A stretch of 64,000 bases of DNA, from the NCBI GenBank assembly GCA_037833965.1, contig AP031353.1:15130501-15194500 (forward strand), given 5' to 3'. The position numbers were made by a program, and so were the translations under genes. Positions 1 through 59,689 of this stretch are shown one piece after another. The stretch's first letter is position 1. The number at the start of each line of letters is the position of its first letter. This DNA is from Marchantia polymorpha subsp. ruderalis (lineage: Eukaryota > Streptophyta > Marchantiopsida > Marchantiales > Marchantiaceae). The notes beneath the pieces were generated by a model that made no database searches, had not been told where the DNA came from, and saw only the letters and a list, made by a program, of their open reading frames with translations.

Positions 1-1867
1 GAAAGTCGAATAGAGTCGTGGATCAGGTTATCTGTGTGTTCGCAGTCGCGCATCTCGGCAGCCAGCCAAGCATGCGTAAGGCCGTGCTTCGAATTTGGCC
101 GTAGAGTGGTCGTTCGTTCGCTGCAGGCGTGCGTGCATGAGACGGAGGATTTTCGCTGGGTTAGAGACGGGTTCGTCCGCTTCCGGGCTTGAGGTTTCGT
201 CAGGAGGATTGTCGAGAGGGGTGTGAGCGTTTTCGTGGGTCTCGCAAGCGGGCTCCGGTTCTTGGGCGAGAGTGCGGTTTTTTCTGGTCTTCTGGGCGCA
301 GGCAGAAGCCTGCGCTGCGTTTGCGTCGGTGTGGATAATCTGAACAAACGCTGTGTGCCTGAGGGCGGCCCGTTCTTCGAGTACAAGCAATGTCGGAACA
401 AGTTGGATGGATGATAGATTTCCAAAAACGGAGATACCTGATCAGTAGTACTTGTCTGCTTGTGTCGATCGTGTTTTTTGGGAGAATGTACCATTGTGAC
501 TGAGATGTTTGAAGCTCCAACTCTGTCAAGTCCTAGATCTCCTGCTGAAGTTCTTAACCCAACCCCAAGGTTTCCACTGTTACTTGATTGTTTGAGCGAG
601 TCCAAAGGTGGTGCGAAGACATTTTGAGTTGTATTTCCGCTTTGAGGATAACCCTGGCCAGCAGTCAGCTGATTCACGAGATCAGGATTCTGTAGAAGAA
701 GGGTAAGAAGAGCTGGATCATGTGCTACTGCACCCCCAGCAGATAGTTGTTGGAGTAGCAAATCAAGCCCACTGACATTGGATACCCTCCTCGACTGATC
801 AACAGAAGAATCTGCAGCACTATACCCACTTCCAGGTTGAAACATATTGTTTGAAGGTTCTGCCATGAAACTGTTCAAAGCTATTCCAGACGGCATCCCA
901 TTTGTGGTTGGGGCAGTCATATGGTCTGTTGAAATCTGCATTGCAGAAGCAGCCTTCCAGTGATTATTGTCTAGGAATATCTCAAATGTAAGACTATCGT
1001 CATAATTCGGCTCTTCTTCCCAGGGATCTTTAGGGTCACTTGGTATAGTACTCGCATCTGGATAGTAGGCCTCCTCTTCTCTCTTCACGCGAGCAGACTG
1101 CATTTCTTTCTCTTTACTGTCTTCTCCCGCAGCTACATTCCTTTGAGGGTCCAGATGAAATTCTGCTGGAATTCTCCATCGAATCATGTTCGCTCTTAGA
1201 GCAGCATAGAAATCAATGATGGCAGGTTCTTTTGGTGGAAACCGAGAACTAGAACTCTCAACAAACTGTTGTCCCTCCTTGACCTCTACTTCATTTTCAG
1301 GAGTCGGAGAAGGTATTGTATACAACGGTACGCCAGTCGCGGGGCGTCCCGACCCCATCTGTGGATAAAGCTGCCCCGATACTGGGGCAGAAGGATGGTT
1401 TTGGTCCAAAAAGGCCGGATGTGTGTTTGTCACGGTGACAGAAACGGGATTATCTCTGGGCATATTTTTGGTAGGTCTTACTACTTCACCTCCGACAGGA
1501 AACACTGTTGCATCACTCGGTTCCTTGCATGAAAAAAGCCTGGAACCAACGTGTCTGTCGGTTGTTGTACTTGTTGGGGTATCATTGCGTGATGCACAGA
1601 CTCCATCAACCCCGGGTTAGAGCTGAAAGGAGTGAATATTTGAGACTCATCTGCTGAAACTGACGTGCTCTTTGGATACGTTTTCTGAGGAATAGAATCG
1701 AGAATGGCTGCTGATGACAAAATACCTTGAGAACGGTCAGATGTGGATGTAATCACTCTCTGGGGTATATCTTCCGGACTCAACGGTGTACTGACAATTT
1801 CGGAAAGATCTGGAGGTGAAGTGGGGTTCTCAATAGGAGGACGCTCAGGTGATGCGTATAGACGATA
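1..1867 (-). pseudogene. LD: LUMINIDEPENDENS-like gene fragment with probable frameshift
   Basis: Read right to left, one frame is open from about 1617 to the left window edge. It contains RANMIRWRIPAEFHLDPQ (about 1145-1200) and DPKDPWEEEPNYDDSL (about 990-1040). These match what I know of the conserved region of LUMINIDEPENDENS, a plant homeodomain-family nuclear protein linked to flowering-time and RNA-processing control, where a TPPE-type block is followed by a PKEPWD...YDDSLTPEI block. The part nearer 1867 is read in another frame (from about 1867 to 1481, low-complexity Ser/Pro/Thr-rich). The frames switch within 1490-1620, most simply by a 1-bp indel near the A6 run at about 1532. No homeodomain or further 5' exon is visible to the right, where a retrotransposon follows. 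The similarity is weak below about 420, so the 3' limit is uncertain. It could be a broken duplicate, or a real exon whose intron I fail to see. Confidence 0.55.
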
Positions 1868-2543: not shown

Positions 2544-2960
2544 TAAGGTGGAGTGTGACAGTCCGGCGTGAAGATTCTCTATGCGACTTGGTGGACGTGA
2601 TGTCATTGTAGGCACTGGAGGCGGAAGGTGACAGGGGCGTTGGAGATCAAATCGGGATCGCGATGCGATGCGATGTCCCGTGTGTGTTGTCTTGTTTTGT
2701 GCTGTGTTTCCTTTAGACTGGAGAGTCGTTGCTAGCTGGTTGCTTGTGTTTGGATCCTCTCCAGTCTTGCTTCCTAGTGCGCGCCCGTGTAGGGGTGACG
2801 TTGAGTTCCGGAGTAGTTTTACTCCTGTGTGCTGGCGATAGGGGGCTGGACTTGATCACCGGCTGGCCTATCTATGTTTCTCTCACGGTGAGACTGGAGT
2901 GATGACCAGTAGACCGTGAGAGTCTTCTTGCTGTGATGACAGGTTAGGTTGCCCATACCC
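2544..2960 (+). repeat. Putative 5' LTR of the methyltransferase retrotransposon
   Basis: The segment starts TGTGACAGTCC and precedes the gag frame by about 500 bases with no coding potential, as expected for an LTR plus leader. A possible LTR end, GATGACA, lies at 2935-2941. I could not recognise a tRNA primer-binding site, and there is no second LTR copy in the window to define the limits, so both ends are estimates. Confidence 0.35.
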
Positions 2961-3117
2961 CTTAGCTAGTAAGGCTAGAGTAGCTCAGTGCGGCACGACG
3001 TCAGGGGCGGATTGGGTTATTGGGTGGAGATCTGGCAGTGATGCCAGTTGATGTCTCGTCATCACGGAGCAGTCTAGTGGTCCTGTTGAGGACCGCGGTG
3101 GATTTACGCGGAGTGGA

Positions 3118-4734
3118 TTGAGGTATCGGCTACCTTCACCTATTTCGCCAGTTGTTGCGGAGCAGGACCAGAGTGTTGCATACACAGAGTCTTTGGTGGT
3201 GATATCGTCTAGTGTTCCAACCCCGTTGATTTGGGACATGGACGGGATGTACGGGGCCGCGAAGGGCCCTCGACGTTACTCTGGTGCAGTGGGCACCATC
3301 AAGCTTGATGATTTTATTCAAGAGTTCGACACGTGGTGTGATATGCAGTTTCTGCGTAACCCCACGTTGTTTACACCCTTCTTTGCATGGAAGGGGTTAT
3401 TCCAGCATTTGGAGGGGCCTCCCATGGACGATTATCATGAGTTTGGTAGAGAGTATGGTGCAGAGATTGATGCATGGAGACGGCATTGGTCTCCGAACTA
3501 CTCATCCATTACCCAGGGTGGTGTGGGTACCAGTGGAGGTGCGAGTATCGGCATCAGTGGAGGTGCGAGTAGTAGCATCAGCGAGGGTACCAGTGGAGCA
3601 GTTGGCACAACTGGTACTAGTACTAGCAGCGGTATTGTTAGCATTGCCGGCGGCAGCACAAGGGGAGATGCAAGTGGCGTACCTTCGTTTAGCCCCATTC
3701 TTGAGTTCTTCCAGATATTGAGGAAGAATTATCAGGGGGTGAAAACGGAGAAGTTGAGGAGCCTCCAGGAGTTTGAGCGGAAGACTGGTGAGAGTCTTCG
3801 TGAGGCATACACTCGTATGCGACGGCTCATTTCAGTTACTCACGGTGTGACTGAGGCACAGGCTGTCCAGTAGTGGTATCGGATCCTGGACAGAGAGTTG
3901 CGGAGGAGAGTACGTGATGCTATTCTCATGAGCGACTCATCACCCACATTAGCTCATGTGTTTGCTCTTTCTGAGAAGATTGAGCTTAACATGGTGGAGG
4001 AGAGGGTGGTGACGTCTACATTTGCGAGGGACACGACCACTACTTCGCGTATCCCACATAGCCCAGCGCAGTCTCGCCCCATAAGTGGGAGTCGTGGAGG
4101 TCATACACGACATCCTTCAGGTCACAGAGAGCATAGTGCGCGGGCACCACTGCCTTCATTTTCGGGCCAGCCACAGGGACCGTCATGTTGGACATGCGGA
4201 GGAAGTCATATGAGGAAGGATTGTCCCCAGGAGTGACAGGGACAAACTCCACATGCTAGGCCACAGCCGGCACAGGTGACCTGTGATCATTGTCATCGAC
4301 CGGGTCATCCTCGAGAGCGTTGCTTTGACCTTCATCTTGAGTTGAGATCTGGAGGTAGAGGTCGTGGAGGTGATGCTCCGCGAGGCCGAGGTGGTCGAGG
4401 TGGTAGAGGTACCGGGGCCATTGAGCGTACCGCAGCGAGTGCTACTTCCGCCACAGAGAGCGCTATGGCTGCTCGGATTGAGCAGTTGGAGTAGAGGCTT
4501 GCTACTATGGCTGGTCTGGGGGCGAGCACTTCCACATCTTACGAGGGAGAGGATTTCTCCTATTTGGCCAATGTAGCACAGGTTGAGGCATCAGTTGCAG
4601 TGACCAGAGGTGGTGCTCGCACTTCAGAGCCACGAGGTGCGACTAGTTGGACCCTCAGAGGGGTGAGGGTGGACGTCAGTCTAGACTTCCCCAGTCCTTT
4701 TTGTTGTCAGAGGTGGGTAGCAGTTCATCTATGA
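3118..4734 (+). pseudogene. Retrotransposon gag, three premature stops
   Basis: A single frame encodes the capsid/nucleocapsid part of the polyprotein once stops at 3871 (TAG), 4234 (TGA) and 4492 (TAG) are read over. The first third is a gag-like helical region followed by a Gly/Ser/Thr-rich stretch (about 3505-3680). Two zinc knuckles follow: CWTCGGSHMRKDC (about 4186-4224, C-x2-C-x3-H-x4-C) and CDHCHRPGHPRERC (about 4282-4323, C-x2-C-x4-H-x4-C). An RGG-type Arg/Gly stretch lies at about 4345-4420. Such knuckles and RGG tracts bind the genomic RNA during packaging. No convincing initiator ATG is present; the frame is open back to about 3052. All three stops are one transition away from Gln or Arg codons. 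Confidence 0.8.
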
Positions 4735-5903
4735 GACCTGCACCGCCTATTGACACTAGAGTGAGAACTGAGGTTCTTACATCATCTGTTGTGGACGCAG
4801 ACGTGCCATCTAGTGCAGTGATGCGGATGGCCACTTCAGTCTTGCGATCTCCATTGTTTTCAGCCACGGAGTTGATAGACTCTGGTATTGATTTGGCTCG
4901 AGTATTTCGGGTAGCAGCCACGTCGTGTGAGCATGGGAGAGTCGCTGCTACGAGTGCCGAGATACGTGAGGATACAGTTGAGGACCCATCCTCAACGTCT
5001 ACATTGTTCAAGGAGACGACTTGGCAGGCCGCAGCGGCGAGGATGGAGTCCTTACCAGCTCGTCCAGCCATTGATCGCGAGAGTATTGTTCCTGGTGTAT
5101 GTATGGTGGACAACCGAAGTGGTCTATTTCGGTTAGTGAGTTCTACTGGACAGGTGTATGTCCTAGCCAGAGTTTTGTTGGATTCTGGTGCACTGCCCTT
5201 GATGTTGGGCAAAACTGCATGCATTAGTTTGGGCATTCGGAGGTCAGAGTTGGAACCTTGCCTATTCCAGATCCAGACATCCCTTGGTGGCGCCAGCAAT
5301 AGGTCTTACTGTATGACCAGGGAGAGCATAGCGGTGCAGTTGAGGCATGATCATCCTCATGATAGCTCGCAGTTTGAAGTTCGTGCTGTGGTTACATCAG
5401 CAGAGGCATATGATGTGCTTGTTGGTGGAGTGGTGTTATACCCGATGGGCTTTTGGATGGACTATTGGACGGAGACTGCCGCATATCGTCCTGGTTGGCA
5501 GTCCGGAGATGGACGTCTAAGCGAGCTGCCAGTGAGATTTATTTCTCGGGATCGACCTCTTGGATCTTCATCAGCGGTCTTGGCATCTGTAGCGGGTTTT
5601 AGCGGAGTGCTTACCTGGCCCGATGACTTGTTGGAGGGAAACATGTCTGCCGACGATACCTCAGTCTACGAGGATGTGGAGGAAGTTGTGAGTTTCACAG
5701 CGGCGGTGACTTCACCCTTAGATGTTCCACTGTGGAGTTCGTGCCAGACACTACAGTTGGAGGCTAATAGGTTGGTGAAAAAGGCTTGGAGTGAAGCCTC
5801 TTTACCGGCAGAGCCAGACAGGGCTTCAGCTGATCGGCTAGTTAGTGGGTCTAGCGCATTGTCTCCATTGATTACTACACCTATTGCATGGGAGTATTCC
5901 TCA
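4647..5903 (+). pseudogene. Retrotransposon aspartic protease and linker to methyltransferase
   Basis: This frame is -1 relative to gag and overlaps it at 4647-4732. The signature LLDSGALPLMLGK (DSG codons at 5181-5189) is the active-site loop of a retropepsin-type protease that would mature the polyprotein. A later VLVGGVVLYPMGFW block (about 5417-5460) resembles the second conserved strand region of gypsy proteases. The following ~145 codons have no recognisable domain and join directly, in the same frame, to the methyltransferase. I see no canonical slippery heptamer in the overlap, so the gag/protease frame change may be a simple indel. Confidence 0.7.
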
Positions 5904-6862
5904 GAGGGCATTTGTTTGCTGGATCTTTTTGGTGGAATCAGCACAGGTTTGGCTGCAGTGTTGCAGTCAGGTATTCTCGTAAGGAGATATTTGTATGTGG
6001 AGAAGGACGAGACTGCACGTCGAGTCTCTTCACGACATGTTGCATAGTTGATGCGGCGTTTTCCTTCGTTGTTGCCGCGATCAGCTGTCCGAGGATTCCA
6101 GAAGGCGTTGCCTTCAGACATTTCATTGCTGGGGGCGCCAGACCTTGATCGCGTTGGCCATATTGATATGGTGATTGCGGGCTGGCCATGTCAGGGACAC
6201 ACACGCGCTGGACATGGGACAGGGTTGCATGATCCCAGATCTCGGATGTTTTGGGAGATGATGCGAGTGTTACGTCATCTCCAAGTGCAGCAGACACGTT
6301 CTCCAGCATACATTCTGAAGAACATACCATTGTTGGGTTACACTCGGGCCCAGTTGATGGCTAGTGTCCATCAAGTCCGAGCATGGATTGGATCAGCAGT
6401 ACTGTTGGATGCTGCGAAGGTTGGATCCCGGGCTCATCGTGCACGTTTGTGGTGGATCAACCTTTTGCCGCGTGAGATATTGCGCCATGCATATGATTCG
6501 GTGCAGGGTGATTCTACACTCACCGTTGACAGTATCTTGGATGTTTCCCGACACTCTCAGGTAGTGAGAGTTGCTGACAGGTCACCTATGGCGTTGGTGA
6601 ACCGCGTAGGTCAGCCTCGGATGGCTTTACCTACATTTGTCAGTTATCCAGCATCACATGCATATCGTGATGGGGGACTTGGACTACTATGGGACAGTAC
6701 CCTACATCAGTTGGTGGAGCCCAACGCTGATGAGAGAGAGCGTGCGATGGGGTTTCTTACTGGTGTGACCGCGGCTTCTTCAGTTTCAGAGGCGTTGCGT
6801 CGTCAGGTTTTGGGTCAGGCTATGGACATGAACTGCTTGACGTGGATTGTGAGCTTGGGTTT
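5904..6862 (+). pseudogene. Retrotransposon-encoded C5-cytosine DNA methyltransferase domain
   Basis: C5-methyltransferase motifs occur in canonical order. Motif I is LLDLFGGISTGLAA (about 5916-5957), which binds S-adenosylmethionine, followed by an acidic VEKDE motif II. Motif IV is GWPCQG with the catalytic Cys codon at 6189-6191. The motif VI position reads LKNIPLLG where family members have ENV, so the catalytic Glu is Lys (AAG at 6318-6320). Motif VIII-like VGSRAHRARLWW is at about 6418-6455, and a motif X-like RRQVLGQAMDMNCLTWI is at about 6798-6848. One TAG (6045) interrupts it; it replaces a codon one transition from CAG. The order is not permuted, unlike plant DRM enzymes, and PCQG differs from the PCN of DNMT3/DRM types. 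The domain lies in frame between protease and reverse transcriptase. As it stands it cannot be catalytic. Confidence 0.88.
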
Positions 6863-7112
6863 GGCCGAGCAACGCCGTTTGCGCGCAGATTTGGTGGTTG
6901 TTACACCACTTATTAGCTCATTGCCTACCGGGACGGTAGTGGCAATGGCTGGGGGCGACAGGCGAGATATTCGGCATCCTTGGAGTTTATGGGACGTGAC
7001 AAAAGGACTTGCTAGAGTTGCAGCCCATGCAGTTGGAGAGGATTCTCAGGTGGAGGCGGCTACGAAGGAGGGTACGGAGAATCCTTCTTTGCAGTGTGTA
7101 GCGTAGCAACCA

Positions 7113-8084
7113 TTGACAGTGTCGCCTCCCTCTAGTGTGCCTATGGAGGAGGAATGGGAGCCATTGATTGGTTCCCAGATCACAGGAGGAGAGAAGCAAC
7201 GATTAACACAATTCCTACGAGACTATAGGAGTTGTTTTGCCTTCAGTATGAAGGAGTTGGGTGCGTTGATTGGACCCGGTATACGGATAGAATTGGCTAG
7301 TGATACGCCAATCTTCCGTCGTCCTTATCGATACAGTGAGATGGAGAGAAATTTGATTCGGAGTAGGACGTTGGACCTACTGGAGGCTGGACTAGTGGAG
7401 TTATCGCATGGTGAGTATGCGTCAGCCACTGTCATGCCGGTGAAGAAGGATGTACATGGCAACTACACGGATAGGCGCATGTGTGGAGACTACCGTCCTA
7501 TCAATCGGCAGACGAAGTCCGATAAGTATGGCATGCCTATACCTGAGGAGATCTTCGATGTGGTGGGACATGCGAGGATTTTTAGTACTTTGGATCTTCG
7601 GGCAGTATACCATCAGTTGCCAATTCGGGAGGAGGACAAAACCAAGACAACGTTTTGGGGCGTCAACTCCCACGGCAAGGATTGTTTGTATAAGTGGCGA
7701 TTCTTACCCTTTGGGTTGAAGAATGCACCTGCCGAGTTTCAGAGGGTTATGGACAGAATCCTGGCGGGGCTGGATTTTGTCAGATGTTACATTGATGATA
7801 TCTTGGTGTTTAGTGACACTGTGGAGCAACACAAGATACACTTGCAGATTGTGTTTGAGCGATTGAGGGCTCATGGTTTGAGGTTACATCTTGGGAACTG
7901 TAAGTTCTTCCAGGAGAAGGTTGAGTACTTGGGTCATGTGATATACCCAGGTGGTTTAGGAGTTCAGCAAGCAAAGGTGGAGGCTATTGCACGCATCCCT
8001 CGTCCCACGGATGTGAGTAGAGTTCGTGCATTTATGGGTTTAGCGAACTACTACCGGAGGTATGTGATGGGTTCAGTGCTATAG
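7113..8084 (+). pseudogene. Retrotransposon reverse transcriptase
   Basis: The same frame as the methyltransferase continues after TAG 7104. Reverse transcriptase blocks are visible: CGDYRPIN (about 7483-7506), FSTLDLRAVYHQLPI (about 7580-7625), KWRFLPFGLKNAPAEFQRVMD (about 7692-7755) and the catalytic YIDDILVFS (YIDD codons 7788-7799). FMGLANYYRRYV marks the C-terminal connection. The frame then shifts at about 8066: the expected GFSAIAKPLN continuation is read in the next frame, so one base seems to be lost. The polymerase residues themselves are intact. Its role would be copying element RNA into cDNA in the particle. Confidence 0.9.
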
Positions 8085-8600
8085 CCAAGCCTTTGAACCA
8101 GTTGCTGAAGTCAGATCAGGAGTGGCAATGGGGAGATGAGCAGGAGAGAGCTTTTGTTGAGCTCAAGGCCAGGTTGGTGGCCGCTCCCATCTTGAGGAGA
8201 CCTATCAGAGGTCGTCCATACCAATTGCACACTGATTGGAGTATGTTGGGACTTGGAGTGGTGTTGACGCAGCGTGATGATGAGGGCAAGGAGTTTGTGG
8301 TTGCGTACGCTAGTCTTTCGAACAATGCAGCGGAGTCGCGGTATAATTCGTACGAGGAAGAGTGCTTGACAGTGGTGTGGGCTGTGGCGCACTTCAGGTG
8401 TTACTTGTTTGGTACGCAGTTCACCCTTGTTACTGATCATCAACCGCTCAAGTGGTTGATGGAGTCCGACAAGCTTATAGGGAAGCTTGCACGGTGAGCT
8501 CTCATCTTACAGGAGTACGACTTTCAGGTGGTGCATAGACCTGGAGTTGCGAACCTAGATGCCGATGGTTTGAGTCGAAACCCATGCACTAGCCAGGAGG
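8068..8600 (+). pseudogene. Retrotransposon RNase H
   Basis: The frame resumes with AIAKPLNQLLK and continues through an RNase H domain with LHTDWSMLGLGVVLTQ (first Asp, about 8225), SYEEECLTVVWAV (Glu, about 8350) and LVTDHQPLKWL (Asp, about 8425). A TGA at 8495 sits where gypsy elements usually have Trp in LARWAL, that is TGG to TGA. The stretch QEYDFQVVHRPGVANLDADGLSR after it is the usual RNase H to integrase junction (a VHRPG..N..AD-type motif). Confidence 0.85.
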
Positions 8601-9685
8601 ATGACACTGGAGCTAGATGGCATGGTGAGGTTGACGAGGAGATGGTGCCTGGTTGGCATGCATCTGCCTTCATGTGTTGGTTAAGTGGAAACTCCAGCAG
8701 AGAGGATCATCTGACATCTTACTCTAGTAAGAGAGTAGATGGTCGATCTCCAGATCTTGAGGTTGAGGATGGTGGTGTGGATCAGCGTGATGTACACGAT
8801 GATGCATTGGTGTTGGAGTTCCCACGGACCAGCATGGTGCCAGGCACAGTGGGTGCCAAGGAGCGAGATCGTGTTCTCCAACGGGCCAAGAGGTACCGAT
8901 TGGAGGGATCACATGTTCTCCGAGTGTGGGAGGACGAAAGGGTACGAGTAGTACCACATCCAGCCCAGAGAGCACGCATTGTGAGGCATGCTCATGAGGA
9001 GTTGGGACATTTTGGAGTGAAGCGTACATACAGCTTACTCCTTGGTCAGTATTGGTGGCGTGGTATGCATACTCAGGTACAGCAGTTGGTATCACGTTGC
9101 ATGGTTTGTGATCGAGTGAGGGCATCATTCAATGCCCCGACACCAGTGTTACATCCATTACCCATCACGGGGTTGAGTTACCGTTGGAGTTTGGACTTTG
9201 CTGGACCACTACCTTTGACTGTACGACATCATCGGTATGTGTTGGTGATGGTGGAGCATTTCTCCAAGTGGATTGAGTTGGTGGCATTACCTGACAAGGC
9301 AAGTGAGGGAGTAGCGTATGCTTTTCTTGACAGAGTGCTTAGTCACTATGGTGCACCAGCTGAGGTGTTGACCGATCAGGGAACGGAGTTTCAGGATGGG
9401 TTTCAGGTCTTGTGCGACAAGGCACTGATTGATCATCGGACCATGTCGCGAGATCATCCAAAGGCGGATGGTTTAGCTAAACGTGTTGTACAGACGGTGA
9501 AGAGGGCGTTGCGCAAGTATGGTCTGCAGAAAGGTCATCTTGGGGACTGGGATATCCAGTTACCGTGGTTGGCCATGGGATATCGGTTCAGTCGGCAGGC
9601 ATCCTTGGCTTCCTTCTCACCATATTTTCTATTGTACGGCCGAGACCCAGACTTGCCAACACGCCAGCTAGGGGGACGAAGTTAA
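8600..9685 (+). pseudogene. Retrotransposon integrase, truncated, catalytic Glu replaced
   Basis: An HHCC zinc-binding module is at about 8975-9110 (HAHEELGHFGVKRTY ... CMVCDR). The catalytic core follows: WSLDFAGPLP (first Asp, about 9190) and VLTDQGTEF (second Asp, about 9368). The third acidic residue, expected in a DGLAERV-like context, reads DGLAKRV, with AAA at 9479-9481, so the DDE triad is broken by a G-to-A transition. The frame ends at 9685 just after GRDPDLPTR, before the GPY/F region and any chromodomain. The stop is created by the GTTAA repeat at the junction, so the element is truncated rather than naturally ended. Confidence 0.88.
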
Positions 9686-16987: not shown

Positions 16988-17190
16988 ATTGTGGGAAACA
17001 GCTCTCTGACTTTTGGATTCATAGATAATCAACACATACCCGACGACACATACAGACGATTTACGTACCCGTAAGCAGATCATTCAATCAATCTGCTCGT
17101 GGGTTTTTGATTGCCGGTCATCACAAGCGATCGTCGGGTCGATCGAAGCTCCTGTTGCTGTAGCAGCAAACGACAGGCGTAGGAATAAAG

Positions 17191-18672
17191 ATGGATATCA
17201 GCAGATGCACGAAGCTGGAAAGTAAGCCGGGCTCACCGTCGCTCGGAGAGCAGCTGACCGTCATCAGCAACTGCGGCTTGCGCAAAGAGAGCTCCCCAGA
17301 GTCGTGCAGGGAAGGGAGAATTCGGAGAGGAGCCCTGGGAGCAGAAGCGGGAATCCAGAAGAGCAAGAAGCGTTTCGTGGGCGTGAGGCAAAGGCCGTCG
17401 GGGCGATGGGTAGCGGAAATTAAAGACACCACGCAGAAGATCCGCTTGTGGCTGGGCACTTTCGACACGGCTGAGGACGCCGCTCGTGCTTATGATCAAG
17501 CAGCTCAGATTCTCAGAGGCGCTAATACTCGCACCAATTTCGTCCCGGGACCTCTGGCCGATGCTTCCGCGCTGCCATCGAAAGCCGCGAGGCTGCTCCT
17601 CCTGCGCAAAGGTGCAGCAGCAGCTGCTGCTAAGAAGGCTGCAGCTGCAACCCAAGCATCCACAGATCAATCCAGCAGCAGCCATGATCATGGCAGGAAA
17701 CTGATGGCGGGATCCCTCTCCCAACGACAGCAGCTGAAGGCAACGTCGATAGCTGACTACCAAGCTCAGACCTCTGCGAACTCTTCTTCTCTCCACGGCC
17801 TCTCGTCGCTGCTAATGAATGCTTCATATCCACAGCAGCAGCAGCAGCATTCTCATCGGTCAACTCCAGCAGGTTCTCCACCGTCAATTAACTTGACCTC
17901 TACTTACAATGTGAACCTGAGCTCATGCGTAAACGATTCCAGAATGCAGAAGCCGTCGATGAACAAGCCGTCGGAAAGCCGGGCCTTCGAGCCTGGCGGT
18001 GCTGGTGAAGGAATTGTAGAAGATAAGGATTCTGCTCGACTTTTTAGTTCCTGTAACATGTCCGCAGCTGATAATTCAGTTGCCCACTACAATGCCATAG
18101 GCAACTTTAACCGACAATTTCTACAGAACAAGAACATTCGTAGCTGCTCAGACTATCCCTACGCCAGCTGCGAGAATGGTCTGATTCGTGAAGAGCAGGA
18201 TTACAACTGCGTTGCAGCTCCTGGTCGGATGGACAGTTTGGATGCGGATATCAGCTGCAGCGCTTTGTCAGGGTTGGAAGATGTAGATCCAAGTTGCGTG
18301 GATGCGTTCGACTCTTGGGCCGAGATGAATATTTTGAACAGTGACCTCGCTTCCTCCATGCACATTCCCAGCTGCGGCTCGATTCAGTCGGACTTTGTTG
18401 TGGACTCGACTGCTGCTGCTGATGATCTTCAAATGTCCGAGCACATGAGGAGGAGGATGTACGAGAGGAACCTGTCGGCGAGTCTGTTCGCCATGAATGG
18501 GGTTCAAGAGTGTCTGATGCTGTACAGCAGCTGCTCCGAAGCAAAGAGCGGCAGTGCAGTGCCCTACTGCATGTCTTCTCCGTCGTTGTCACTGCCTCCC
18601 TCTTTCAAAAGGTCTCTCTGGGGTCAGCTGGCTTCCGAGGCAGTCAGAATTCCGGATGGACACAATGTGTGA
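17191..18672 (+). CDS. AP2/ERF-domain transcription factor
   Basis: An intronless 493-residue protein with one AP2/ERF domain at about residues 61-118. It opens [17 protein letters not shown], continues [21 protein letters not shown] and ends [12 protein letters not shown] single domain with WVAEI and the Ala/Asp pattern of ERF rather than DREB proteins indicates binding to GCC-box-type DNA in the nucleus. The QKIR and [10 protein letters not shown] details resemble ERN/RAP2.11-like ERFs, but the subgroup is a guess. Residues about 134-150 are Ala/Lys-rich, and the rest is Ser/Gln-rich with acidic patches, plausible for activation. The N-terminal 58 residues are basic and unstructured. The ATG at 17191 is the first in frame after the candidate TATA box. 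Confidence 0.92.
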
Positions 18673-42057: not shown

Positions 42058-44568
<2,511 letters not shown>

Positions 44569-57818: not shown

Positions 57819-59689
57819 ATGTCGGTCTCCAAAGGAAATTCGATGATTGTTGCTCTGGTGGTTCTCGCTGCACTGGTTCTTAATGCAGAAGGAACCACAT
57901 ACACCGTTGGCGATGGTTTGGGTTGGACGTTTCCACCGTTGATGGACACTTACGATACCTGGGCTAAGCAGCACACGTTCGTCGTTGGTGACGAGCTTGG
58001 TAAGTTTTTTGATACTCATTCATTCATTATGAAGTTTCTGGAGTCTGTAGCTAGAAGAACCGTCTGCAATTCAATGAATTGGCGGAGCAGGGTGAATGAT
58101 CACGATAGACTCGAGCTTCCTGTGTCAGTCTGTGAGGTGGACGCAATGTCTTGAGAGTGCCAGACTGATCCCTGTTTTCCTGGTTCCTGCATATACAGCA
58201 GGGGCTAGTCAGGCCAAGCTTCTTAGTATTCATGCACTTTGCAATGCCCTTGTTTAGCAACTGGTCTTTGCAGCTTCACATTCGTAAATAGTGTCTTAAG
58301 ATTTGATGGTGAATGAGGATTCTGACGGATGTTATGATATATCTCGGGTTGGCGAATAAATTGCATGATTCTATTGCAGTTTTCAACTATGACGGCCTTC
58401 TCCACAATGTCTTCGAGGTCTCTCAAGCCGACCTGGACCTGTGTGACTACAGCAAGCCTATCGCCAAGTACGAAATGTCGAACGCGAAGGTTACTCTGAC
58501 TAGAGCGGGGTATCATGGCTTCATTTGTGGAGTCATCGGACACTGCCTGGGAAGCATGAAAATGAATTTGGTGGTCGCGGATTCTGCTACTCCTGTACCA
58601 GTCGCTCCGGCTCCAGTGGTGGCACCTTCTCCTCCTCCTCCAGTTGCCTCTCCTCCCCCTCCCCCTCCATCTCCACCTCCTCCTGCTGCTTCTCCTCCTC
58701 CCCCTCCATCACCACCACCCCCAACCTCGACTCCACCTCCATCAGAATCTCCTCCTTCCCCGTCTTGGACTGCTCCCTCTCCATCTCCTCCTCCTTCTCC
58801 CCCGTCTTGGACTGCTCCATCTCCATCTCCTCCTCCCCCATCTTGGACTGCACCATCGCCATCTCCTCCTCCCCCGAGCTGGACTCCGACTCCTTCTCCT
58901 CCTCCTCCCAGTTGGACTCCTACTCCATCTCCTCCTCCCCCGAGCTGGACCCCAACTCCGTCTCCTCCTCCTCCGAGCTGGAGTACTTCTCCATCTCCTT
59001 CTCCTCCCAGTTGGACTCCAACTCCATCTCCTCCTCCCCCGAGCTGGAGGGCTTCTCCATCTCCTTCTCCTCCCAGTTGGACTCCTACTCCATCTCCTCC
59101 TCCTCCGAGCTGGAGTGCTTCTCCATCTCCTTCTCCTCCCAGTTGGACTCCCACTCCTTCTCCTCCTCCCCCGAGCTGGAGTGCTTCTCCATCTCCTTCT
59201 CCTCCCAGCTGGAAACCAACTCCGTCTCCTCCTCCGCCATCGTGGAGTGCCCAATCTCCTTCTCCTCCTTCCCCGAGTTGGACTCCTACTCCATCGACTC
59301 CTCCCCCCAGTTGGAATCCGACCCCATCTCCTCCTCCCAGCTGGTCGATTGTGGATGAACCGACCGCAAGCCCATCGAAAGCTCCATCGTCTCCTCCTCC
59401 TCCTGCCAAGGCAAGGACACCATCGGCCACTCCAGCTCCTGCCCCGAAGAGCAGCCCTCCCAAGTCCTGGTTGGCTCCGACCAAGACTCCCTCGCTCGCT
59501 CCGTATCAGGCCTTCACACCAATCGGTGCAGCTCCTGTACAATCTGTAGTGGCTCCCTCGGAAGTTGTTCTTCCACCAGCCACGGCACCGACGGCACCGA
59601 CGGTGGTTAGCTCTTCCTGGAGCCTGCAATCTGCGACGGCAATGGGGATCAGTCTTCTCGTCGCCGGTTGTGCTGCTCTGTTTCTCTGA
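57819..59689 (+). CDS. Phytocyanin with very long extensin-like Pro-rich region and GPI signal
   Basis: Two exons, 57819-57999 and 58380-59689, joined in phase 1 at the same place as in the gene at 51848, encode 496 residues. A signal peptide (about 1-25) is followed by a cupredoxin domain with ligands His69, Cys110, His115 and Met120 and a Cys82/Cys116 pair. The next ~300 residues are tandem SPPPP, SPSPP and [17 protein letters not shown] modules, the Ser-Hyp pattern of extensins, then a Pro/Ala arabinogalactan-like segment and a C-terminal hydrophobic tail ([18 protein letters not shown]) for GPI anchoring. It is a chimeric wall or membrane-surface blue copper protein. The ATG at 57819 is chosen because it starts a proper signal peptide; no in-frame ATG lies just upstream. 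Confidence 0.93.
58740..59350 (+). repeat. Codon-level tandem repeat of the extensin-like region
   Basis: About sixteen copies of a block of roughly 30-40 bases encode SPxPPPPSW plus TPTP or SASPSP. Neighbouring pairs share synonymous changes, so the array seems to have grown by unequal exchange of ~66-90-base multiples. Confidence 0.85.

What the first reader, a model, noticed from the sequence alone, without database searches (positions are those of the whole stretch)
5904..6862. A Ty3/gypsy retrotransposon of a land plant carries its own C5-cytosine DNA methyltransferase
Seen: methyltransferase motifs I (DLFGGISTGL), IV (GWPCQG), VI position, VIII (SRAHRARLWW) and X (LGQAMDMNCLTWI) lie in one frame between a retropepsin DSG and a reverse transcriptase YIDD, with no LTR or element boundary between them. 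Established: retrotransposon-encoded C5 methyltransferases have been reported in dinoflagellates and charophyte algae (de Mendoza and colleagues, Nature Communications 2018). Inference: this window extends that arrangement to what looks like a bryophyte, either inherited from a charophyte-grade ancestor or gained again. An element that methylates its own cDNA could mimic silent host chromatin or tune copy number. I do not know whether land-plant cases have been described.
Basis: partly seen in the sequence, partly recalled or inferred. Interest (0 to 1): 0.92.

Follow-up and report, generated by a model that had tools for sequence, protein, structure and literature searches.

The report
Liverwort retrotransposon carrying a DNA methyltransferase
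A jumping gene that is abundant in a liverwort's genome carries its own DNA-marking enzyme, of the kind plants and animals normally use to silence jumping genes, and selection has kept that enzyme, which lets one test why a genomic parasite would write the mark used against it.

Summary
Confirmed. Window 5904-6862 is a DNMT3-type C5 methyltransferase (MTase) in a Ty3/gypsy-coded element of a liverwort, almost certainly Marchantia polymorpha. This copy is dead: in-frame stops in Gag, MTase and pol, motif VI KNI instead of ENV, two frame changes, truncated integrase. The family looks recently active: 183 MTase places in the same genome (at least two are host genes), 24 of 123 scored with an open ORF1, several with identical end repeats. 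Intact copies read Gag-protease-MTase, a conserved TAG-CAACCA (leaky-stop type), then RT-RNaseH-integrase-PHD, so the MTase sits on the Gag side. Ends are DIRS/PAT-like split repeats (A...B-GC-A-B), yet with 4-bp target duplications in 10 of 10 two-ended copies. Eleven bases after A1 look like a self-priming site. MTase dN/dS between subfamilies is 0.12-0.15. Relatives occur in other liverworts, Sphagnum, partly in Closterium, and on a contig filed under a cyanobacterial MAG. The K. nitens element of 2018 is described with the same gypsy domains, Dnmt3 and repeat layout, so this is a land-plant branch of a known kind with new anatomy. Three of three tested leaders hold antisense, spliced host cDNA. 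What the MTase methylates is untested.

The parts
478..1856 (-). captured host cDNA in the variable leader of the element, antisense, one intron absent
   Evidence: 98.0-98.6% identical to host DNA around G000:C6:17310453-17311725; a 125-nt GT...AG stretch is precisely absent. Lies between A1 plus primer site (C4:15129640, outside the window) and the conserved leader.
2635..3237 (+). conserved part of the leader before ORF1 (about 605 nt)
   Evidence: 93.6-96.5% identical to the same stretch of 8 other copies
3238..7106 (+). ORF1 of the element: Gag - zinc knuckles - protease - MTase - TAG; broken in this copy
   Evidence: tblastn of Marchantia P0162 (Mp_8g17980, 1248 aa) and P0140 (Mp_4g09160, 1278 aa) covers 3238-7103; stops at 3871, 4234, 4492, 6045 and a frame change near 4645
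4186..4323 (+). two CCHC zinc knuckles of Gag, 4186-4224 and 4282-4323
   Evidence: a pair of such knuckles also in P0140 and P0162
5100..5465 (+). retropepsin-like protease (approximate limits), LDSG at 5178-5189
   Evidence: the ORF itself has no Pfam hit at 0.001; the homologous stretch of L029 matches Asp_protease_2 at 7.8e-4, below the curated cut-off
5904..6862 (+). DNMT3-type C5-cytosine methyltransferase domain, motifs I-IV-VI-VIII-X in unrearranged order; motif VI KNI at 6318-6326; stop at 6045
   Evidence: Pfam PF00145 7.2e-8; family profile best matches DNMT3A/3B, 1.2e-20; model of relative P0004 matches DNMT3A
7104..7112 (+). conserved stop TAG followed by CAACCA (TAG-CARYYA type) between MTase and RT
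   Evidence: 10 of 10 fetched genome copies; L029 has TAG-CAATCA
7107..9685 (+). ORF2: RT (RVT_1 7467-7943), RNase H (8129-8494), integrase H2C2 and rve (8960-9454); frame change near 8070, TGA at 8495, similarity to other copies ends at 9661; PHD end missing
   Evidence: Pfam; L049 matches window 7064-9661 at 98.2%

Best explanation
This is a decayed copy of an abundant, recently active retrotransposon family of Marchantia. Shown by sequence: intact copies encode Gag-protease-MTase in ORF1, a conserved TAG with a readthrough-type context, and RT-RNaseH-integrase-PHD in ORF2; the ends are split direct repeats (A, about 293 nt, at the left; B of 118 nt, GC, A, B at the right) with TGTC...GACA termini and 4-bp target duplications. 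Inferred: most translation stops at the TAG, so the MTase is made in Gag amounts and packed in every particle, while RT and integrase come from readthrough. Reverse transcription starts from the RNA's own 5' end folded onto the 11-nt site after A1; the internal B-GC-A stretch templates a circle junction GACA-GC-TGTC, which a DDE integrase cuts, losing GC. Most likely function (inferred): the packaged DNMT3-type enzyme methylates the new double-stranded cDNA before integration, and the mark helps the new copy to be tolerated or protected. The domain was kept by purifying selection and is either older than the split of liverworts and Sphagnum or was spread horizontally.
For: Family and range: 176 hits, 120 listed; named Marchantia polymorpha, M. 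paleacea, Riccia, Calypogeia, Sphagnum; 36 hits incl. a partial Closterium NIES-53 match. Long ORF1s of about 1250-1730 aa and 1281-1299 aa in the 10 chosen copies. ORF2 of 1042-1045 aa with RT, RH, IN and PHD in 8 of those 10. Copies on all 9 contigs. TAG-CARYYA in 10 of 10 copies and L029. Split repeats and 4-bp duplications in 10 of 10 two-ended copies; A1 and A2 identical in 7 of 11. Self-priming: 11 nt after A1 in 10 of 11 copies, sequence variable beyond it, complement at A+113 in 10 of 11, both it and a TATA 30 nt before it in 8 of 11; L029 has different letters with the same pairing. DNMT3 class. Selection: MTase dN/dS 0.12-0.15, RT 0.04-0.06, nine comparisons each, all against one copy. 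Motif IV with CQ in 43 and ENV/ENI in 44 of 49 full-span MTases.
Against: No activity, expression, readthrough, priming or methylation data. Five of 127 RT places show no MTase in the 1.1 kb read; three of these have ORF2 frames of 1018-1042 aa (one with a TGA inside), so the MTase may not be needed in cis. No special CG decay: unpolarised C/T-type differences per cytosine are CG 0.0163, CHG 0.0183, CHH 0.0091, which looks like ordinary host CG/CHG methylation. CpG observed/expected of 0.70-0.72 is only a little under the 0.74 and 0.84 of two flanks. The single-profile score of the best phage MTase (60.6 bits) is close to that of the DNMT3A fragment (63.5) and above host DNMT3 (48.8). The circle-junction step rests on repeat layout alone; by plain LTR rules B2 would not be copied from the left end, so some DIRS-like step is needed but not seen.
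Confidence: 0.7

Rival explanations
1. The MTase does not act on the element's cDNA but in trans: on host chromatin, on competing elements, or as a nucleic-acid-binding part of Gag.
For: It is fused to Gag-protease, before the stop, so it would outnumber RT. The few copies without MTase nearby could be served in trans.
Against: Motif IV with CQ and ENV/ENI are kept in 43 and 44 of 49 full-span MTases, which argues for catalysis, not binding alone. Nothing here separates cis from trans action.
Confidence: 0.3
2. The bryophyte elements captured a DNMT3 on their own, independently of the charophyte elements.
For: The 2018 paper calls the K. nitens case an independent acquisition (PMC5890265, section 9). 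No K. nitens sequence was available for the tree. Support for monophyly of all 37 retro MTases is weak (0.03; 0.86 for 36).
Against: In the tree the retro MTases lie beside, not inside, the pair host DNMT3 + mammalian DNMT3A; a late capture from a bryophyte host gene should nest. Domain order, PHD, TAG context, B-GC-A junction and priming layout are shared with the distant L029. K. nitens has the same repeat layout by its figure legend.
Confidence: 0.2
3. Neutral passenger: the MTase is carried without function.
For: Within one subfamily the ratio is higher (0.23); many copies are broken.
Against: dN/dS 0.12-0.15 between subfamilies over 356-362 codons; motifs conserved over lineages about 50% identical.
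Confidence: 0.05
4. A host or bacterial MTase inserted into this one copy, or an assembly artefact.
For: None found.
Against: 122 of 127 RT places have MTase upstream, mostly at constant start-to-start distances of about 970 (+ strand) or 1210 (- strand) bases; relatives in other species.
Confidence: 0.01

Closest known systems
KnitGypsy-Dnmt3 of Klebsormidium nitens (de Mendoza et al. 2018, PMC5890265; parts 1-2, sections 9 and 11 and passages read)
   Same: Dnmt3-type MTase in a gypsy-coded element; repeats in the DIRS order; Ka/Ks under 0.2
   Different: Here in land plants. The MTase is on ORF1 (Gag-protease-MTase) before a conserved TAG; the paper speaks of the Pol polyprotein ORF. In its main text 'PHD' and 'split' have 0 hits and 'stop codon' 1, on Symbiodinium; its figures and supplements were not seen. 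No sequence comparison was possible.
SymbioDIRS-Dnmt3 of Symbiodinium (same paper)
   Same: Dnmt3-type MTase, A-coding-B-A-B repeats
   Different: Tyrosine recombinase instead of DDE integrase; dinoflagellate host
DIRS/PAT tyrosine-recombinase elements (PMC4157794, passages read)
   Same: Split direct repeats A1-B1-A2-B2
   Different: Those have a tyrosine recombinase and no integrase; here an rve/H2C2 integrase and 4-bp duplications. DIRS methyltransferases named in PMC5890265 are Dam-like adenine enzymes.
Tf1-type self-primed LTR retrotransposons (recalled, no call)
   Same: 11 nt at the predicted RNA 5' end complementary to the site after the left repeat
   Different: Tf1 has ordinary LTRs and no MTase (recalled)
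DNMT3 (animal, bryophyte) and DRM (plant)
   Same: Fold and motifs I, IV, VI, VIII, X in unrearranged order as in DNMT3
   Different: Fused to Gag-protease; 19-26% identical to DNMT3 chains over the aligned part

Membership tests
DNMT-bearing gypsy retrotransposon (KnitGypsy-Dnmt3 kind) | DNMT3-class MTase inside the coding region | tested here: met
   profile vs PDB chains: DNMT3A 1.2e-20; 4onj (a DRM by recall) 3.5e-11; DRM2 1.3e-8; HhaI 4.5e-7; DNMT2-type 1.3e-4; tree
DNMT-bearing gypsy retrotransposon (KnitGypsy-Dnmt3 kind) | gypsy domain composition | tested here: met
   RVT_1, RT_RNaseH, Integrase_H2C2, rve in this order
DNMT-bearing gypsy retrotransposon (KnitGypsy-Dnmt3 kind) | repeats A-coding-B-A-B | tested here: met
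DNMT-bearing gypsy retrotransposon (KnitGypsy-Dnmt3 kind) | MTase under purifying selection (Ka/Ks < 0.2) | tested here: met
   0.12-0.15 in 9 of 9 comparisons with one copy of another subfamily; 0.23 within a subfamily
DNMT-bearing gypsy retrotransposon (KnitGypsy-Dnmt3 kind) | shared descent with the K. nitens element | not tested
DNMT-bearing gypsy retrotransposon (KnitGypsy-Dnmt3 kind) | de novo methylation of DNA | not testable with these tools
   needs an assay
Ty3/gypsy LTR retrotransposon | two full identical LTRs at the ends | tested here: not met
   left end has A only, right end B-GC-A-B
Ty3/gypsy LTR retrotransposon | DDE integrase with short target duplications | tested here: met
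   rve domain; 4 bp in 10 of 10 two-ended copies
DIRS/PAT | split direct repeats | tested here: met
DIRS/PAT | tyrosine recombinase, no integrase | tested here: not met
   Pfam finds rve and H2C2 and no recombinase in L029 ORF1 and ORF2 and in the window ORFs given
DNMT3 fold | structure matches DNMT3 better than bacterial C5 enzymes | tested here: met
Tf1-type self-priming | RNA 5' end complementary to the primer site | tested here: met
   sequence only: 11 nt in 10 of 11 copies; different letters in L029; the RNA start is predicted, not mapped
Tf1-type self-priming | mapped RNA start and cleaved primer | not testable with these tools
   needs 5' RACE or cDNA end mapping

The most novel reading that the evidence does not exclude
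One lineage of retroelements older than land plants joins gypsy coding with DIRS-like ends, self-priming, a PHD reader on the integrase and a DNMT3 writer on Gag. Each particle carries many MTase molecules that methylate its cDNA circle, the integrase cuts the B-GC-A junction of that circle, and the particle's reverse transcriptase copies host mRNAs into the leader during plus-strand transfer, so that insertions arrive pre-marked and with an antisense host transcript.
Probability: 0.3. Interest if true: 0.92.

Novelty: new variant of a known kind. Interest (0 to 1): 0.78.

Why it matters
[quoted passage not shown] these data contradict that for bryophytes. Marchantia is a laboratory plant, so the question why a retrotransposon keeps a silencing-type methyltransferase becomes testable. 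The anatomy also adds a gypsy-type integrase working with DIRS-like ends, whose route of integration is open.

Tried and rejected
Rejected: single insertion or artefact. Bacterial or phage capture: the viral scan gave 28 loci and the prokaryote scan 5; only L029 is a close relative, and it is taken as a eukaryotic element in a MAG; the two phage alignments looked at cover mainly motifs IV-VI. Against this, the best phage (L001, 60.6 bits) scores close to the DNMT3A fragment (63.5) and above the host DNMT3 (48.8) with one profile, so the class rests on the PDB profile ranking, structure and tree.

Failed first: LTRs by direct repeats in the window and between halves of copies, because the left repeat lay further upstream. 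No hit named K. nitens turned up. Print: nine of the ten paper searches bore on the claim (one search was on split repeats) and listed no paper that I saw to describe a land-plant case; most subscription papers are not in that library, and of PMC10952607, PMC8616336 and PMC12344493 I saw passages only. The tree used one fragmentary mammalian DNMT3A, one host DNMT3, 14 phage and 2 bacterial MTases (of 32 in hand) and 37 chosen retro MTases; it was midpoint-rooted.

Dropped or chosen before counts: one search lists only MTases spanning the whole profile (49; the window halves did not enter). The ten copies were chosen for open ORF1, so 10 of 10 open is by choice. In the duplication count one of 11 copies (L087/L088) was left out, as its second B was not in the stretch. 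In one search the 11 mismatches of L048/L049 come from a shorter A2; over the 271 shared bases they are identical. Leaders L068 and L069 (copies L056, L058) showed no A1 and were left out. The L029 primer pair was picked from five inverted pairs of 10 or more bases, for its TATA 29 bases before and the TTCA before its partner. Splice letters were read only for the window's intron; for L054 and L042 the exon blocks come from match coordinates.

Full report
What was checked. The window reads Gag, zinc knuckles, protease, MTase, RT, RNase H and integrase on the plus strand. This copy is broken: stops at 3871, 4234, 4492 (Gag), 6045 (MTase) and 8495 (pol), frame changes near 4645 and 8070, KNI for ENV at 6318-6326, and an integrase whose similarity to other copies ends at 9661.

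Whose genome. The window is G000:C4:15130501-15194500 of a 241.5-Mb genome in 9 contigs. ORF1 matches Marchantia polymorpha Mp_8g17980 (P0162) at 91-92%, gene-model gaps counted, and AP2, tubulin and plastocyanin-like genes lie in the window.

The family. A search with 6048-7106 gave 176 proteins (120 listed; only 8000 candidates scored), with named hits of Marchantia polymorpha, M. paleacea, Riccia sorocarpa, Calypogeia fissa, Sphagnum troendelagicum and S. jensenii. A search with the MTase part of L029 ORF1 gave 36 proteins, including long ORF1s and a Closterium sp. NIES-53 protein that matches over 26% of the query. A Gag-protease query that left the MTase out gave 17 proteins, among them one of Sphagnum fallax, and all 17 carry at least part of the MTase. 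In the same genome PF00145 matched at 123 places (290 candidates, 123 scored), 24 of them in open frames of 1351-1365 aa (counted from its table), and an MTase query scored 150 of 540 candidates, 84-100% identical. The two lists make 183 distinct places on all 9 contigs; at least two are host genes (DNMT3 in L034, a rearranged DRM-like frame in L035). Of 127 RT places scored (of 3273 candidates; all 90-100% identical), 112 have a listed MTase within 4 kb upstream. Of the other 15, 10 show MTase sequence in a 1.1-kb stretch upstream, two show Gag only and three show neither.

L029 is a 9,285-base contig filed under a Synechococcales MAG; its ends overlap by 127 bases. It holds ORF1 (Gag-protease-MTase) and ORF2 (RT-RNaseH-integrase-PHD) and is taken as a eukaryotic contaminant. 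Its MTase is about 50% identical to P0004.

The stop between MTase and RT. ORF1 and ORF2 are in one frame, parted by TAG: followed by CAATCA in L029 and by CAACCA in the window and in 10 of 10 fetched copies. All fit TAG-CARYYA, the tobamovirus-type readthrough context (recalled). None of the other five stops in the window copy is followed by CARYYA. So the MTase is on the Gag side. Two proteins without a species name (P0142, P0148) run from MTase into RT without a stop; some annotated Marchantia and Sphagnum gene models also run on, perhaps by modelled introns. Four more distant proteins (P0151, P0152, P0154, P0155) have the MTase before the integrase, and two of these show RT-RNaseH-MTase-integrase-PHD, so the order varies.

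The ends. Copies share A (about 293 nt, TGTCATGTAG...TATTTCA) at the left and, at the right, B (118 nt, GTTGTGACA...GCACGACA), GC, A, B. This is the split-repeat order of PAT-type elements and the one given for KnitGypsy-Dnmt3. Ten of ten copies with both ends in hand have exactly 4 bp duplicated (GATG, TGTG, GGTT, ACGT, CAGT, CATT, CTAT, CGCT, AAGC, AGTG), as a DDE integrase would leave. A1 and A2 are identical in 7 of 11 copies and differ by 1, 1 and 3 bases in three; in L048/L049 A2 is shorter and identical over 271 bases. The internal junction is CACGACA-GC-TGTCA; L029 has the same letters CACGACAGCTGTCA.

Priming. Right after A1, 11 bases (CTCGAAGAACT) are conserved in 10 of 11 copies and the next bases vary. 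Their complement AGTTCTTCGAG stands at A+113 in 10 of 11; TATA[AC]A is at A+83 in 9 of 11, both together, 30 bases apart, in 8 of 11. L029 has other letters in the same relation: TATA 7210, ATCTTTGTCAAG 7239, CTTGACAAAGAT 7416 after TTCA. This fits priming by the RNA's own 5' end, as in Tf1 (recalled). One copy (L079) has GTTGTGA and a run of A after A1, which looks like an RNA 3' end inside B2.

Selection. Between the copy L058 and nine copies of another subfamily dN/dS is 0.12-0.15 for the MTase and 0.04-0.06 for RT; the nine comparisons share L058 and are not independent. Within the subfamily it is 0.23 and 0.16 over 36 pairs. The MTase is kept, less tightly than RT. Against L029 the synonymous sites are near or beyond saturation.

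Leaders. Between the primer site and the last 605 bases before ORF1, the nine leaders compared (the window and eight copies) hold 1.6-3.8 kb that differs between copies, with stretches shared by some. Three of three leaders tested hold host cDNA in antisense: the window (125-nt intron absent, letters read; a further piece matches another place, C2:28332441-28332734), L054 (a Sec63-domain gene on C8, five exon blocks joined) and L042 (two blocks on C6). The L054 piece also stands at other places, so it was passed on. Antisense capture near the primer site fits a template switch of plus-strand DNA onto an mRNA (inference).

Literature. De Mendoza et al. 2018 (PMC5890265; parts 1-2, sections 9 and 11, and passages) described the K. 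nitens and Symbiodinium elements. PMC6338049 (passages) denies transposon-encoded DNA methylases to land plants. PMC12344493 (passages) speaks of DNMT3 in 'LTR Copia and DIRS' elements of streptophytes and dinoflagellates. Nine searches of an open-access library showed me no land-plant case; the second of these papers' supplements and de Mendoza's figures were not seen.

Verdict. A land-plant branch of DNMT3-bearing gypsy elements with a fuller anatomy than I found described: a new variant of a known kind. The function of the MTase remains inferred.

Noticed in passing
window 478-1856 (-); leaders in L054, L067, L042: Leaders of the element hold antisense, spliced host cDNA; three of three tested have parent sequence with intron gaps elsewhere in the genome.
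   Followed up: partly
P0151, P0154 (also P0152, P0155): A distant group has the MTase between RNase H and integrase, followed by a PHD finger: a second position for the same domain.
   Followed up: no
L045 and 7 other ORF2s of the ten fetched copies; L029:3492-6635: PHD finger at the integrase C-terminus, a possible histone reader in the same element as a DNA methylation writer.
   Followed up: no
L079 (minus strand): After A1 stands GTTGTGA and a poly(A) run instead of the primer site, as if an RNA 3' end had been copied in.
   Followed up: no
L091, L093, L097, L098, L100: Five RT places without MTase in the 1.1 kb read upstream, three with ORF2 frames of 1018-1042 aa (one with a TGA inside): possible MTase-less derivatives.
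   Followed up: partly
L042-L061: Within one subfamily mean synonymous divergence is 0.060 in the MTase but 0.019 in RT, which suggests mosaic copies.
   Followed up: no
L029 (CADCWO010000201.1); P0061: Retroelement sequence filed under bacterial MAGs (Synechococcales, Obscuribacterales), probably eukaryotic contamination.
   Followed up: no
L108 (C9:22743095 region): Carries the window's leader, 97.3% over 2.7 kb: a sister copy.
   Followed up: no
window 17164-18669, 42058-44565, 58313-59686: AP2-domain, tubulin and plastocyanin-like genes of the host.
   Followed up: no
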